DNA of 40,747 nt, taken from Aequorivita sp. Its GTDB lineage: Bacteria; Bacteroidota; Bacteroidia; Flavobacteriales; Flavobacteriaceae. The stretch is taken from the NCBI GenBank assembly GCA_002715485.1, contig PAZL01000034.1, positions 28,212 to 68,958 on the forward strand. Reading direction: 5' to 3'. Position numbers and translations under genes: made by a program. Below the pieces are notes generated by a model, which searched no databases, was not told the origin of the DNA, and saw only the letters and a list, made by a program, of their open reading frames with translations. The first letter of the stretch is position 1. The number at the start of each line of letters is the position of its first letter. This document shows, piece by piece, positions 36,859 through 40,747 of this stretch.

Positions 36859-38670
36859 TTAAAAGGGATATGTGTTTTCCGAAATTACTTTATTTGCAAT
36901 TGTTTTTCGCAACTCACCAATATTTGGCATGTTTTGATATTTGGTGAATCGTTTAAGTCCCATTAACATTGCGCGTTGTTCATCTCCTTCAGAAAAAGAA
37001 AGAATTGCTTCTTTCGCTTTCACAGTAATAATATCAACAGCATGGTAAAGGTATAATTGCGACATTGCAATTTGTTCCTTTTGCGTATCCGCTCCAAAGC
37101 GTTTTGCATTCTTTTCGGTACGAAGGATAGCGCTCTCGGCCATATAGATTTCAATCAAAATATCTGCAGCGGCCATCAATGTTTGCTGATGTTCTTCCAG
37201 TTCGGTACCATATTTTTGCACGGCGCTTCCGGCAACCATTAAGAACACTTTTTTAAGTTTGGCAATCATTGCTTTTTCCTCTGAAAGTAATTCTGAATAG
37301 TCGGGGGTTTCAAAAGAAGGAATTCCCATCAATTCTGAGGCAACTGCCTGGGCTGGGTTTAAAAGATCTACGTGACCTTTCATTGCTTTTTTTACCAACA
37401 TGCCCACTGCCAACATACGATTGATTTCGTTGGTGCCTTCATAGATACGGGCAATTCGAGCATCGCGCCAAGCAGACTCCATGGGGGTATCTGCGCTGTA
37501 ACCCATTCCGCCGTAAATTTGGATGCCTTCATCACTACAATTTTGAATGTCTTCAGAAACGGCAACCTTTAGTATAGAACATTCAATAGCATATTCCTCA
37601 ACACCTTTTAATTCTGCTTCTTGGTGGCTATTACCAGCTTTTACGCGAAGCGCTATTCGGTCTTCAATATTCTTTCCAGCACGGTAGCAAGCACTTTCGC
37701 CCACATACGCACTGGTTGCCATTTCGGCTAACTTTAGCTTTATTGCGCCAAAGGAAGAAATAGGCACATTAAACTGAATGCGCTCATTTGCGTATTTAAC
37801 GGCACTCGAAATAACACGGCGTTGTGCGTCAAGACTGGCAGCAGCAAGTTTTATTCTGCCTACGTTCAAAGCATTCATGGCAATTTTGAAACCTTCACCG
37901 CGTTCGCCCAACATATTTTCAACAGGAACCTTTGTGTCACTGAAGAAAACCTGACGGGTAGAGGAGGAGTGGATTCCCAACTTCTTTTCTTCCTCGCCCA
38001 TTGAGATTCCGTTTTCTGGATCGTTTTCAACAATAAAGCCAGTGATGTATTTATCATCTTCAATCCGTGCAAAAACAATCAGTGTATGACAAAACCCTGA
38101 ATTTGAAATCCACATTTTCTGTCCACTGATTTTGTAGTATTTTCCGTCTTCAGAAAGTACTGCTTTTGTCTTACCGCTATTGGCATCACTTCCCGCACCT
38201 GGTTCGGTTAAGGCATATGCGCCAAACCATTCTCCCGTAGCAAGTTTTGGTACGTATTTTTTCTTTTGCTCTTCGGTTCCATAAAGCGTAATAGGTAGCG
38301 TACCGATACCTGTGTGCGCTCCAAAAGCAGTAGCCACAGAACCCGTAGCACCAGAGATATAGTCACAAACAAGCATAGTGGTTACAAAGCCCATACCGAG
38401 CCCACCATATGCTTCGGGAACTGCTACACCCAGCAAGCCCATTTCGCCAGCTTTACGCATAACTTCTTCCGTTAGCGCATAATTTTTATGCTCAAACTCT
38501 TCCTTCTTAGGCCATATTTCGCGATCCACAAATTCCTTCACGGAATCGCGCATCATCTTTTGCTCTTCGGAAAAATCTTCTGGCGTGAAGACGTCTTCGG
38601 CTTTTGTTTCTTTTACTAGAAATTGACCGCCTCTTAGTAATTCAGAGTTATTTTTAGTTTGTGTTTCCAT
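36859..38670 (-). CDS. Acyl-CoA dehydrogenase
   Basis: FAD enzyme performing the first step of fatty-acid beta-oxidation, acyl-CoA to trans-2-enoyl-CoA. At 603 residues it belongs to the long VLCAD-like form with a C-terminal extension, usual in Bacteroidota. Motifs: 'FGAYALTEPGAGSDAN' (FAD/substrate), 'KMWISNSGFCHTLIVFARI', 'NVGRIKLAAASL', 'CSDEGIQIYGGMGY', and the catalytic glutamate near residue 410 in 'ARIYEGTNEINR'. It is the last gene of a minus-strand cluster with a thiolase, from which it is separated by a small four-helix-bundle gene framed by inverted repeats. A terminator follows at 36771-36809. Confidence 0.97.
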   Translation of the reverse strand: METQTKNNSELLRGGQFLVKETKAEDVFTPEDFSEEQKMMRDSVKEFVDREIWPKKEEFEHKNYALTEEVMRKAGEMGLLGVAVPEAYGGLGMGFVTTMLVCDYISGATGSVATAFGAHTGIGTLPITLYGTEEQKKKYVPKLATGEWFGAYALTEPGAGSDANSGKTKAVLSEDGKYYKISGQKMWISNSGFCHTLIVFARIEDDKYITGFIVENDPENGISMGEEEKKLGIHSSSTRQVFFSDTKVPVENMLGERGEGFKIAMNALNVGRIKLAAASLDAQRRVISSAVKYANERIQFNVPISSFGAIKLKLAEMATSAYVGESACYRAGKNIEDRIALRVKAGNSHQEAELKGVEEYAIECSILKVAVSEDIQNCSDEGIQIYGGMGYSADTPMESAWRDARIARIYEGTNEINRMLAVGMLVKKAMKGHVDLLNPAQAVASELMGIPSFETPDYSELLSEEKAMIAKLKKVFLMVAGSAVQKYGTELEEHQQTLMAAADILIEIYMAESAILRTEKNAKRFGADTQKEQIAMSQLYLYHAVDIITVKAKEAILSFSEGDEQRAMLMGLKRFTKYQNMPNIGELRKTIANKVISENTYPF

Positions 38671-38688
38671 TTTTTCTATTTTGTATTT

Positions 38689-39106
38689 TAAATTCTAAAT
38701 TTTGAATGAAAATTTAGATGTTATTGTTTTTTAAATTGGTCTGAGCCGTGATTATTATTTTGGTCAAAATGTTTATTATATGTTCTATTTCCGTCAAAAA
38801 AGGGGAAATATTAAGTTGGGTCAAATCAGACTTGTCCAAAAGTTTAAGCCAATATTTTGTTTCGCGTGCTTCCTTAGAAGCAATGGACATTTTATTTATA
38901 AAATCCTTTTTCGACTGGGCTGCCGATGCTTCTTCAACGTTAGCACCTATACTGGTTGCCGAACGTACAAGTTGTTTTGAAAGAATGTATTCCTTTTCAT
39001 TTTGAAGTTTTTTGTATAAAGAAATTATATCAAGGGAAAACTTAAAGGTTTTGTCAATAATGATATTTTCCTTCTTCGGCTCCATTCATTCAAAATTTAG
39101 AATTTA
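38689..39106 (-). mobile_element. IVS-like unit 1: four-helix-bundle gene between perfect 22-base inverted repeats
   Basis: Positions 38689-38710 and 39085-39106 are exact reverse complements (22 of 22; core TTCATTCAAAATTTAG on the right side). Between them lies a single gene of 123 codons. One repeat ends 3 bases past the stop codon and the other begins at the start codon. Outside the unit, 18 bases remain to the acyl-CoA dehydrogenase start and 4 bases to the thiolase stop, a normal operon gap. The layout equals that of 23S rRNA intervening sequences, whose ends pair into a stem around an ORF of the same family. No target duplication is visible, so mobility is inferred. Confidence 0.6.
38714..39085 (-). 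CDS. Four-helix-bundle protein (23S rRNA intervening-sequence family), unit 1
   Basis: A 123-residue helical protein of the four-helix-bundle/IVS-encoded family (PF05635 type). Family pattern: 'FKFSLDIISLYKKL', 'EYILSKQLVRSATSIGANVEEA', 'KKDFINKMSIASKEARETKYWLKLL', and a hydrophobic last helix 'IEHIINILTKIIITAQ'. Homologues are encoded inside rRNA intervening sequences or scattered between genes; a related fold, Avd, works with diversity-generating retroelements. No catalytic residues are evident, and oligomeric nucleic-acid binding is the usual guess. The ATG lies at the inner edge of the right inverted repeat. It belongs to a different subgroup from the second copy at 40342-40695: only the 'LVRSA..I..N..E' core is shared. 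Confidence 0.9.
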   Translation of the reverse strand: MEPKKENIIIDKTFKFSLDIISLYKKLQNEKEYILSKQLVRSATSIGANVEEASAAQSKKDFINKMSIASKEARETKYWLKLLDKSDLTQLNISPFLTEIEHIINILTKIIITAQTNLKNNNI

Positions 39107-39110
39107 CCAT

Positions 39111-40298
39111 TTATAATATTTCATAAATACCAGCCGCTCCTTGTCCAGTCCCCACGCACATTGTTACCATTCCGTATTTACCTTGTAGGTTTCGCTTGCG
39201 CATTTCATCAAAAAGTTGAACGGAAAGTTTCGCACCGGTACAGCCAAGTGGATGCCCCAATGCAATTGCACCTCCGTTTACATTAACTTTTTCTTTATCC
39301 AATCCAAGTTCACGGATAACCGCCAGTGATTGCGATGCAAAGGCTTCGTTAAGTTCTATAAGCTCCATTTGTTCTTGCTTCAATCCAGCTTGTTTTAGTG
39401 CTTTTGGAATTGCATAGACTGGTCCAATTCCCATAATGCTAGGCTCCACGCCAACAGCGGCAAAACTCACCAATCTGGCGATGGGCTCAAGATTTAATTC
39501 CTTCACCATTTCTTCGCTCATAATCACTGCGAAGGCCGCACCATCACTCATTTGTGAAGAGTTTCCAGCGGTAACACTTCCACCTTCGGCAAAAACTGGG
39601 CGAAGTTTTGAAAGGGCTTCAATATTAGTGCCTTTACGCGGACCTTCGTCTTTAGTTACGGTATATTTTTCGGTTACTTTTTTACCCGAATCATTTACGA
39701 AAGTATGCTCCACTTCAATAGGAACAATTTGATCTTGAAAACGATTTTCATCCTGAGCTTTTAACGCGCGCATTTGGCTGGTGTAAGCAAACTCGTCTTG
39801 GTCCTCGCGGGAAACATTGTATTTCTTTGCAACAGCTTCTGCAGTCAACCCCATATTCCAATAATAGTCTTCGTGACCTTCTTTAGCCAATTTATAATCG
39901 GGAACTGGTTTGTAACCCCCCATCGGAATGTAACTCATACTTTCAGCACCCCCTGCAATAATGCAATCTGCCATTCCTGTTTGGATTTTTGCAGCAGCAA
40001 TGGAGATGGTTTCCAATCCTGATGCGCAATAACGATTTACCGTCATTCCGGGAATATCAACAATATCAAGACCCATCAACGAAATCAGACGCCCCATATT
40101 TAGCCCCTGTTCGGCTTCGGGCATGGCATTACCCACAATTACATCGTCGATGCGTTTTTTGTCCAGTTGCGGCAATTCATTCATGATATATTTAATAGTT
40201 TCCGCAGCAAGCTCATCCGGTCTTTTGAAGCGAAATACTCCGCGAGGTGCTTTTCCTACTGCGGTTCTGTATGCTTTTACTATATATGCTGTTTTCAT
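39111..40298 (-). CDS. Acetyl-CoA C-acyltransferase (thiolase)
   Basis: Last step of beta-oxidation: thiolytic cleavage of 3-ketoacyl-CoA to acetyl-CoA and a shortened acyl-CoA. It has 395 residues, normal length. Catalytic residues: C91 in '[13 protein letters not shown]', H349 in '[16 protein letters not shown]' and C381 in '[14 protein letters not shown]'; 'ELNEAFASQ' is also present. The pairing with a VLCAD-like acyl-CoA dehydrogenase favours a degradative (FadA-type) role over acetoacetyl-CoA synthesis. In related genomes a multifunctional hydratase/3-hydroxyacyl-CoA dehydrogenase gene usually sits just upstream, beyond the right edge here. Both neighbours inside the window are four-helix-bundle genes in inverted-repeat frames. 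Confidence 0.96.
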
Positions 40299-40319
40299 TT
40301 TTGTTTAGTATTTAGATGT

Positions 40320-40729
40320 TAGTATTGAGTATTTAGAAGGCTCATTTTTCTAACGATTTTATTAGTGCATAACTCATTTTTTGTTGTTCGACCACCTTGG
40401 ATAAAATTGGATTTACAATGGTTTCTGAACAGAATGATAGTTTAATTGATAATAACAATTGAGTAAAAAGTTCATATGAAGATCCATTTGCAATACCAAG
40501 AAAATTCTTGAATTCTCCATTGGTATTTCTTCCTGCTCCTTCAGCAATATTTGAAGGAATTGAAACAGCACTTCTACGAAGTTGACTGATCAATCCAAAC
40601 TTTTCTTCATTTGGAAAATTTGCAGTTAGAATATAGACTTCTTCAGCAATTTCCATCGCCTTATTCCAAATTTTTAAATCTTCTAGCTTATGCATTTTCT
40701 CAATTCTCAATTCTAACTACTCAATTCTA
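40320..40729 (-). mobile_element. IVS-like unit 2: four-helix-bundle gene between imperfect 19-base inverted repeats
   Basis: Positions 40320-40338 read TAGTATTGAGTATTTAGAA; the reverse complement of 40711-40729 is TAGAATTGAGTAGTTAGAA, 17 of 19 identical. Inside is one four-helix-bundle gene. As in unit 1, the left repeat ends exactly 3 bases past the stop codon, and the total length (410) is close to that of unit 1 (418). The flanks also hold short tandem variants: CTCAATTCT three times on the right, TAGTATT(T/G)AG twice on the left. The thiolase start is 21 bases from the left end. No target duplication is seen. Confidence 0.5.
40342..40695 (-). CDS. Four-helix-bundle protein (23S rRNA intervening-sequence family), unit 2
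   Basis: A 117-residue helical protein of the same broad family, from the ATG at 40695 (MHKLEDLKIWNKAMEIAEEV, the classic family opening). An in-frame TTG five codons upstream (40710) would begin exactly at the inner edge of the right repeat but is less likely. Signature segments: 'FPNEEKFGLISQLRRSAVSI', 'PSNIAEGAGRNTNGEFKNFL', 'GIANGSSYELFTQLLLSIKL'. This is the 'SIPSNIAEG' subgroup, which differs from unit 1 ('SIGANVEEA'). Like the first copy it is in the orientation of the beta-oxidation genes and just upstream of the thiolase, so it is probably read through by the operon transcript. Confidence 0.9.
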   Translation of the reverse strand: MHKLEDLKIWNKAMEIAEEVYILTANFPNEEKFGLISQLRRSAVSIPSNIAEGAGRNTNGEFKNFLGIANGSSYELFTQLLLSIKLSFCSETIVNPILSKVVEQQKMSYALIKSLEK

Positions 40730-40747
40730 GTTTCTCAACGGTTTTCC
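40727..40747 (-). CDS. Possible 3' end of an upstream gene
   Basis: On the minus strand the window edge reads GGA AAA CCG TTG AGA AAC TAG, six codons and a stop whose TAG is the last triplet of the inverted repeat. It could be the end of the expected hydratase/3-hydroxyacyl-CoA dehydrogenase gene, but the other frames also close within a few codons, so this is weak. Confidence 0.2.
   Translation of the reverse strand, partial: GKPLRN

What the first reader, a model, noticed from the sequence alone, without database searches (positions are those of the whole stretch)
38689..39106. A 418-base unit: four-helix-bundle gene framed by perfect 22-base inverted repeats inside a beta-oxidation operon
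The two 22-base arms are exact reverse complements, 374 bases apart. One ends 3 bases past the stop codon and the other starts at the start codon. Removing the unit leaves a normal gap of about 22 bases between acyl-CoA dehydrogenase and thiolase. The protein family is known from 23S rRNA intervening sequences, which have the same ORF-in-a-stem design. Here the unit sits between protein genes. It may be a mini mobile element or an RNA-processing cassette in an mRNA.
Basis: partly seen in the sequence, partly recalled or inferred. Interest (0 to 1): 0.8.

Follow-up and report, generated by a model that had tools for sequence, protein, structure and literature searches.

The report
Operon-embedded S23 gene in RNA stem
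A small four-helix-bundle gene framed by mutually complementary repeats sits inside a fatty-acid operon, and similar units, each with its own matching repeats, are scattered through the operons of related bacteria, as if the long-known 23S rRNA intervening sequence also lived in messenger RNAs.

Summary
The 418-base unit is real: two exact 22-nt inverted arms frame an intact S23/23S_rRNA_IVP (PF05635) gene between thiolase and fadE. Of 27 related junctions, 5 are empty (18-26 nt gap). It is one of a family: 9 copies in this genome (a second one beside it) and 5-21 in each of 23 congeners searched. Over 144 units, arms pair with their own partner (duplex -27 against -17 kcal/mol mispaired; 44 of 47 sites), carry tandem heptamers (108 of 144; 13-14 of 217 control gaps), differ between loci and tend to go with the ORF to other sites. 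In 128 of 132 units both neighbour genes read in the S23 direction (control triples 144 of 302). Median dN/dS is 0.08-0.14. Cyanobacterial plasmid copies show heptamer arms too, as does the published Coxiella 23S IVS. Best reading: a spreading, promoterless "mRNA intervening sequence" whose arms pair in the operon transcript. RNA processing and the way of spreading are inferred. Caveats: heptamer arrays also stand alone (0 of 20 checked had S23 nearby), arm co-divergence shows only below 80% protein identity, and exchange of operon flanks may explain part of the turnover.

The parts
38689..39106 (-). the unit: arm + S23 ORF + arm, in the sense direction of the thiolase-fadE operon
39085..39106 (-). 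5' arm (sense TAAATTCTAAATTTTGAATGAA); overlaps the first base of the start codon
38689..38710 (-). 3' arm (sense TTCATTCAAAATTTAGAATTTA)
38671..38708 (-). heptamer-periodic stretch at and beyond the 3' arm (threshold 15 of 21 identities at lag 7)
   Evidence: best 17 of 21 downstream, 15 of 21 upstream
38714..39085 (-). S23 / 23S_rRNA_IVP four-helix-bundle gene, 123 aa, no internal stop
   Evidence: PDB 2rld, E 1e-26
39111..40298 (-). host gene upstream: acetyl-CoA acyltransferase (thiolase, fadA-like)
36859..38670 (-). host gene downstream: acyl-CoA dehydrogenase (fadE-like)
40342..40710 (-). second S23 gene of the same operon, upstream of thiolase (listed from a TTG; in-frame ATG at 40695)
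40304..40338 (-). 3' heptamer arm of the second unit (sense TTCTAAATACTCAATACTAACATCTAAATACTAAA)
   Evidence: coordinates read
40696..40739 (-). 5' heptamer arm of the second unit, at the contig end; overlaps the TTG-started reading of the ORF
   Evidence: coordinates read

Best explanation
An S23 cassette: a promoterless gene for an S23-type four-helix-bundle protein, framed by inverted arrays of heptamers, that spreads into gaps of co-transcribed genes in the sense direction. Supported by sequence: the unit is arms plus ORF, arms match their own partner, related units sit at different operon sites, sites are empty or hold unrelated units in different species, the protein is under purifying selection. 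Inferred: the host operon transcribes it; the arms close into a stem around the ORF in the mRNA, as in 23S rRNA intervening sequences; a double-strand RNase (RNase III in the IVS precedent) cuts the stem and frees the S23 message, so that the host cistrons are little disturbed; and the S23 oligomer binds this nucleic acid and helps the unit to persist or spread.
For: Own arms pair better than mispaired ones: alignment median 18 against 9, 98 of 144 above the 95th percentile of mispaired; duplex -27.0 against -17.0 kcal/mol, own stronger in 127 of 144 units and at 44 of 47 sites; phylum sample: own stronger in 24 of 28, 19 of 28 above the 95th percentile. Units at one site with 60-80% protein identity: own beats crossed pairing in 51 of 60 pairs (8 worse; 13 sites), and below 60% in 122 of 131. 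In this very unit, five genomes show one compensatory A-T/G-C change and one G-C/G-U change in the stem. Heptamers: 108 of 144 units against 13 and 14 of 217 control gaps; lags 5, 6, 9, 10 near background; 61 of 70 other Bacteroidota, 21 of 28 phylum loci. Arms go with the ORF: of 59 cross-site pairs with at least 70% protein identity 36 share arms; these are 7 distinct site pairs, 5 with shared arms. Sense placement: 128 of 132 units, 43 of 46 sites, 69 of 69 other Bacteroidota with both neighbours called, against 144 of 302 gene triples. Arm polarity, G-rich 5' and C-rich 3'. Median dN/dS 0.08 within a site, 0.14 between sites. Junction states and relocation. Precedent: S23 inside an Azospirillum 23S gene; Coxiella IVS with heptamers, 28-bp stem and RNase III cleavage in vitro (PMC4990558, passages).
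Against: No transcript or cleavage data. No insertion with exact ends or target duplication was seen. At 80-90% protein identity own pairing is better than crossed in 20 and worse in 43 of 73 pairs; at 90-99% 24 and 19 of 57. The own partner ranks first in only 27 of 144 (median rank 5), and in other Bacteroidota only 15 of 69 exceed the 95th percentile of mispaired (own median 16, mispaired 10); relatives share arms, which raises the control. G009 and G016 have two mismatches in the stem; the G020 relative has lost pairing (score 9). 36 of 144 units lack a heptamer call. Arrays also stand alone: 0 of 20 chosen GAGTATT arrays have S23 within about 1 kb. Sense bias may only reflect the need of a promoter; in the phylum sample it is 21 of 28. 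Thiolase-end and fadE-start variants go with the unit type, so homologous exchange may explain part of the turnover. In L261 and L264 both arrays run the same way and L266 shows none. The Coxiella authors think S23p is probably not made in vivo (PMC4990558, passages).
Confidence: 0.58

Rival explanations
1. Heptamer arrays come first: they are a common class of intergenic tandem repeat at gene ends, and S23 genes are captured between, or recombine into, such arrays. The inverted pairing is a side effect without RNA function.
For: Arrays without S23 are frequent: 14 intergenic lag-7 arrays in 400 kb of G016, and 0 of 20 chosen GAGTATT arrays near S23; 10 of 137 codirectional, 3 of 38 convergent and 4 of 46 divergent gaps carry one. 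Junctions without an intact ORF but with repeats or remnants: 7 of 27 (by eye).
Against: Below 80% protein identity arms at one site diverge and still pair with their own partner; related ORFs at different sites share arms in 5 of 7 site pairs; the five empty junctions have no array; solo arrays seldom have an inverted partner (2 of 20 with 14 or more of 17).
Confidence: 0.2
2. A DNA-level mini transposon: the arms are terminal inverted repeats moved by an enzyme supplied from elsewhere, with S23 as an accessory DNA-binding protein.
For: Inverted ends, size near 420 bp, related copies at different sites.
Against: Arms differ from locus to locus, whereas a transposase is expected to need constant ends. 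Only PF05635 matches the ORF at E 0.001 or better. Placement is nearly always with the operon. Target duplications were not tested.
Confidence: 0.13
3. A resident operon gene: S23 is a host regulator of mRNA stability or translation of its neighbours, inherited vertically and held in place by selection; the stem is an intercistronic stabiliser.
For: Purifying selection; 36 of 70 other-Bacteroidota loci have a thiolase-like start just downstream, as the window's second unit has (the query was that unit's subfamily, so this is a biased sample).
Against: The fadA-fadE gap alone shows nine states (sorted by eye) with a fewest count of 15 changes in 27 genomes; 5 of 24 multi-genome sites hold units under 50% identical; a related unit sits in an unrelated operon.
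Confidence: 0.09

Closest known systems
23S rRNA intervening sequence (IVS) with S23 ORF (Coxiella, Leptospira and others)
   Same: S23-type ORF inside a terminal inverted repeat; 428-444 nt in Coxiella, 418 here; heptamers reported upstream of the Coxiella ORF (PMC4990558, passages)
   Different: sits between protein genes of an operon; many copies per genome; arms differ between loci
Heptameric intergenic repeats: GGGAATC of Xanthomonas and GGGGA(T/C)T of Nostoc (PMC4692102, passages), TAACTGA of Beggiatoaceae and some Bacteroidetes incl. A. sublithincola (PMC4679880, passages), STRR of cyanobacteria (recalled; one search is a listing)
   Same: tandem heptamers, mostly intergenic; in Xanthomonas often in inverted pairs (70 and 75 cases)
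   Different: searching the main texts gave no 'S23' or 'four helix' in PMC4679880 and no 'four helix' or 'xcc0516' in PMC4692102; here such arrays flank an S23 gene
Avd of diversity-generating retroelements (bAvd, PF22296)
   Same: sub-threshold similarity for two other S23 proteins of this genome
   Different: the window protein has no match to bAvd; no reverse transcriptase or template repeat was looked for
S23 genes in cas loci (PMC3936711, passages)
   Same: S23 between operon genes
   Different: there listed among functions associated with CRISPR-Cas; here cas operons look like one more host operon

Membership tests
23S rRNA IVS | ORF of the S23 / 23S_rRNA_IVP family | tested here: met
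   PF05635 90.7 bits, cut-off 33.8
23S rRNA IVS | terminal inverted repeat able to close a stem around the ORF | tested here: met
   22 of 22 exact; z -5.9, stem in MFE and centroid
23S rRNA IVS | location inside an rRNA gene | tested here: not met
   between thiolase and fadE; no Rfam match at gathering score in the window
23S rRNA IVS | excision by RNase III | not testable with these tools
   needs RNA ends
Insertion sequence / MITE | transposase, or ends shared with an element that has one | tested here: not met
   only PF05635 at E 0.001 or better in the ORF; the arm core occurs exactly only at this unit in the held genome; the rest of the genome was not searched for transposases
Insertion sequence / MITE | target-site duplication | not tested
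   no filled/empty pair was close enough to fix the ends
DGR accessory protein Avd | match to the bAvd family | tested here: not met
   not among the matches of the window protein up to E 10; 16.8 bits against cut-off 40 for the second S23 protein
Heptameric intergenic repeat arrays | tandem 7-nt units | tested here: met
   lag-7 identities 15 of 21 upstream and 17 of 21 downstream; the 22-nt arm itself holds only about three imperfect units

The most novel reading that the evidence does not exclude
Heptamer arrays of bacteria (STRR, GGGAATC, TAACTGA and the like) and rRNA intervening sequences belong to one class of RNA-level selfish element: S23 cassettes are its protein-coding members, ORF-less hairpins and solo arrays its reduced members, and the arms are kept complementary but free to change sequence because only pairing in RNA matters, or because one arm is copied from the other.
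Probability: 0.28. Interest if true: 0.9.

Novelty: new variant of a known kind. Interest (0 to 1): 0.72.

Why it matters
PMC4990558 (passages) calls the function and origin of rRNA intervening sequences unclear, and PMC4692102 (passages) says that heptameric repeats are over-represented but hardly studied. One architecture (S23 gene, heptamer arms, sense placement in operons) may link the two and makes both testable in cultured marine Bacteroidota. Units whose arms change sequence while staying complementary would be a natural experiment on what the stem is for. It also suggests that "four helix bundle protein" genes in cas and metabolic operons may be guests, not parts of the pathway.

Tried and rejected
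Rfam on the window at gathering scores: no family. Phage records: no match to one S23 protein, that of L001. PADLOC: no match for three S23 proteins. DGR Avd: sub-threshold only. Stop codons in all frames of the 5' arm: 57 of 144 against 30.1 shuffled, but smaller excesses occur on other arms and strands, and shuffling destroys the periodicity, so it is left open. Genome-wide link of arrays with S23: 1 intergenic lag-7 array in 360 kb of six S23-free genomes, 9 in 360 kb of six S23-rich ones, but six of the nine come from one genome and five of the six S23-free genomes are GC-richer than most of the others. Whole cyanobacterial genomes could not be reached, so other phyla rest on 14 chosen of 33 plasmid records. 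After filing was held I checked the site grouping: one of 47 sites (11 units) had merged two adjacent gaps, so repeats the within-site counts without it. Literature: no paper that links S23 genes outside rRNA with inverted heptamer arms was seen in searches; the listings of 16, 17, 26, 27 and 36 were cut at 20 rows of 96, 195, 79, 42 and 294, and preprints and most subscription journals are not held.

Full report
What is there. The arms (38689-38710, 39085-39106) are exact inverted copies of 22 nt around a minus-strand ORF of 123 aa. The ORF is a member of PF05635, 23S_rRNA_IVP, and TIGR02436; PDB 2rld is a clear homologue by sequence (E 1e-26). The neighbours are a thiolase and an acyl-CoA dehydrogenase of the FadE kind on the same strand. 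A second PF05635 gene lies upstream of the thiolase at 40342-40710. The sense RNA folds far better than shuffles (z -5.9), and the arms close the structure.

A family in the genome. The held assembly has nine PF05635 matches, one with an internal stop. By eye, eight of nine show repeats on both sides, different in each locus; the script listed inverted pairs for seven of nine, not for L003 (broken ORF) and L008. Titles of near relatives name the genus Aequorivita. Of 39 genomes searched as relatives, own included, 30 had the family, and the 23 congeners held 5-21 matches each. Of 118 genomes drawn from the phylum, own included, 90 had it.

Statistics on 144 units. I collected 148 distinct ORFs from the fetched loci, of which 144 have at least 150 nt on both sides; 138 come from 28 genomes of the genus and 6 from six other genomes of the order. 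This is not the complete set, since listings were cut and I chose among them. Upstream against reverse-complemented downstream flank: own median 18, mispaired 9, shuffled 8; 98 of 144 exceed the 95th and 41 the 99th percentile of mispaired; the own partner ranks first in 27 of 144, median rank 5, because relatives share arms. Direct repeats: median 9, 28 above the same threshold. Identity at lag 7 is 0.43 upstream and 0.45 downstream, with peaks at 14 and 21, 0.28-0.32 at most other lags, and no peak in ORF or far flank; lags 1 and 8 are somewhat raised. With a threshold of 14 of 21, 108 of 144 units have a heptamer array within 100 nt, against 13 and 14 of 217 control gaps. Duplex energies agree: own stronger in 127 of 144 units, 44 of 47 sites.

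Units, sites and movement. Flank similarity groups the units into 47 sites, one of which merges two adjacent gaps. Without it, 5 of 24 multi-genome sites hold a pair under 50% identical, and the 5th percentile of same-site identity is 24%. Units at different sites can be up to 87% identical. Of 59 cross-site pairs with at least 70% identity, 36 also share arms; these pairs stand for 7 distinct site pairs, 5 with shared arms. Within G014 the unit of the fadA-fadE gap and that of the gap upstream of fadA are 75% identical with similar arms. A 60% identical relative of the window unit in G020, its frame broken by one stop, lies between the genes of an efflux membrane-fusion protein and an RND transporter (named by me from their translations); its 5' arm matches the window's arm core at 18 of 20 positions, while its 3' side no longer pairs.

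The fadA-fadE junction. 28 genomes were searched and 27 gave the junction; in G006 the matches were at paralogue level. By eye: 5 hold the window's unit, 5 are empty (18-26 nt), 10 hold other S23 genes or decayed ones, 7 hold repeats or remnants without an intact ORF. On a quick tree of the flanking protein parts the nine labels need at least 15 changes (8 is the least possible; shuffled mean 17.9, as low in 3 of 200), and starred branches alone force 4 for 'empty'. The flanks partly go with the unit: A-type genomes G000, G009, G016 differ in thiolase end and fadE start from the near, empty G017 and G004. So exchange of the whole region by homologous recombination has probably contributed.

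Coevolution of arms (merged site left out; pairs are not independent). Same-site pairs under 60% protein identity: own pairing better in 122, worse in 5 of 131. At 60-80%: 51 and 8 of 60 (13 sites). At 80-90%: 20 and 43 of 73. At 90-99%: 24 and 19 of 57. So arms of diverged units match only their own partner, but among near orthologs there is no sign of fine-tuned co-change. In the window's unit the five genomes show one two-sided change, one G-U change, and two mismatched columns in G009 and G016. G009's frame also has two stops.

Orientation. Both neighbours read in the S23 direction in 128 of 132 units (12 of 144 had a missing neighbour), 43 of 46 sites, and 69 of 69 other Bacteroidota loci with both neighbours called; in the phylum sample 21 of 28. 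Control gene triples of G016: 144 of 302. At least 36 of the 70 Bacteroidota loci lie upstream of a thiolase-like start, so they are not independent. Arms have polarity: G over C upstream at 31 of 36 sites, C over G downstream at 27 of 33. The protein is kept: median dN/dS 0.078 (122 usable of 181 same-site pairs) and 0.144 (56 usable of 135 cross-site pairs).

Beyond the genus. 69 other Bacteroidota loci have lag-7 identity 0.46 on both sides; own pairing has median 16 against 10, but only 15 of 69 exceed the 95th percentile of mispaired, many loci being one site with similar arms. In the phylum sample (28 of 30 loci gave a unit) 21 have heptamers, and own pairing exceeds the 95th percentile in 19. 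From 33 plasmid records with a match I fetched 14: 12 cyanobacterial, one Azospirillum, one Gemmatirosa. Pooled lag-7 identity is 0.46 and 0.47; arm score is 15 or more in 7 of 14, without a control; two have arrays in the same direction and one shows none, by eye. Three sit in cas gene clusters. The Azospirillum copy lies inside a large-subunit rRNA gene. PMC4990558 (passages) reports tandem heptamers before the S23 ORF of the Coxiella 23S IVS, variable in number between strains, a 28-bp stem and cleavage by RNase III in vitro; its authors doubt that the protein is made in vivo. PMC11270868 (passages) reports the same protein family in 16S and 23S insertions of CPR bacteria.

What does not fit. 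Heptamer arrays are a wider class than S23 units. In 400 kb of G016, 14 intergenic lag-7 arrays were found. Of 20 chosen places with GAGTATTGAGTATTGAG in the genus (some orthologous to each other) none has an S23 ORF within about 1 kb, and in all 20 the next gene to the right points towards the array, so that the array lies past its stop codon. PMC4692102 and PMC4679880 (passages) describe such arrays without naming S23. Whether solo arrays are remnants, relatives or the source of the arms is open.

Verdict. The unit belongs to a dispersed family of S23 cassettes in operons, with signs of movement, built like the rRNA intervening sequence. That the stem acts and is cut in RNA is the best-supported inference, not a result.

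Noticed in passing
window 40304-40747: Second S23 unit in the same operon, upstream of thiolase, with TTGAGAAT/CTCAATA-type heptamer arms; 36 of 70 other-Bacteroidota loci have a thiolase-like start just downstream too.
   Followed up: partly
L268 (Azospirillum lipoferum 4B plasmid): S23 ORF inside a 23S rRNA gene, with heptamer-like repeats on its 3' side; no gene is listed there in the collection.
   Followed up: partly
L264, L265, L267: S23 genes between cas6 and cas4, or between the cas10/cmr2 and cmr3 genes, of cyanobacterial plasmids, with heptamer-like arms (in L264 both arrays in the same direction).
   Followed up: partly
L359-L378: Solo GAGTATT heptamer arrays, in 20 of 20 chosen places just past the stop codon of a neighbouring gene, none between divergent genes.
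   Followed up: partly
L075 (G022), fadA-fadE junction: An ORF-less heptamer hairpin of about 108 nt present as two tandem near-copies.
   Followed up: no
5' arms of S23 units: Excess of stop codons in all three frames (57 of 144, shuffled mean 30.1).
   Followed up: partly
L069, L073, L076 against L071, L072: Thiolase C-terminus and fadE N-terminus come in variants that go with the presence of the window's unit, hinting at exchange of the whole region.
   Followed up: partly
L003 (G000:C68): One of the nine S23 genes of this genome has an internal stop codon.
   Followed up: no
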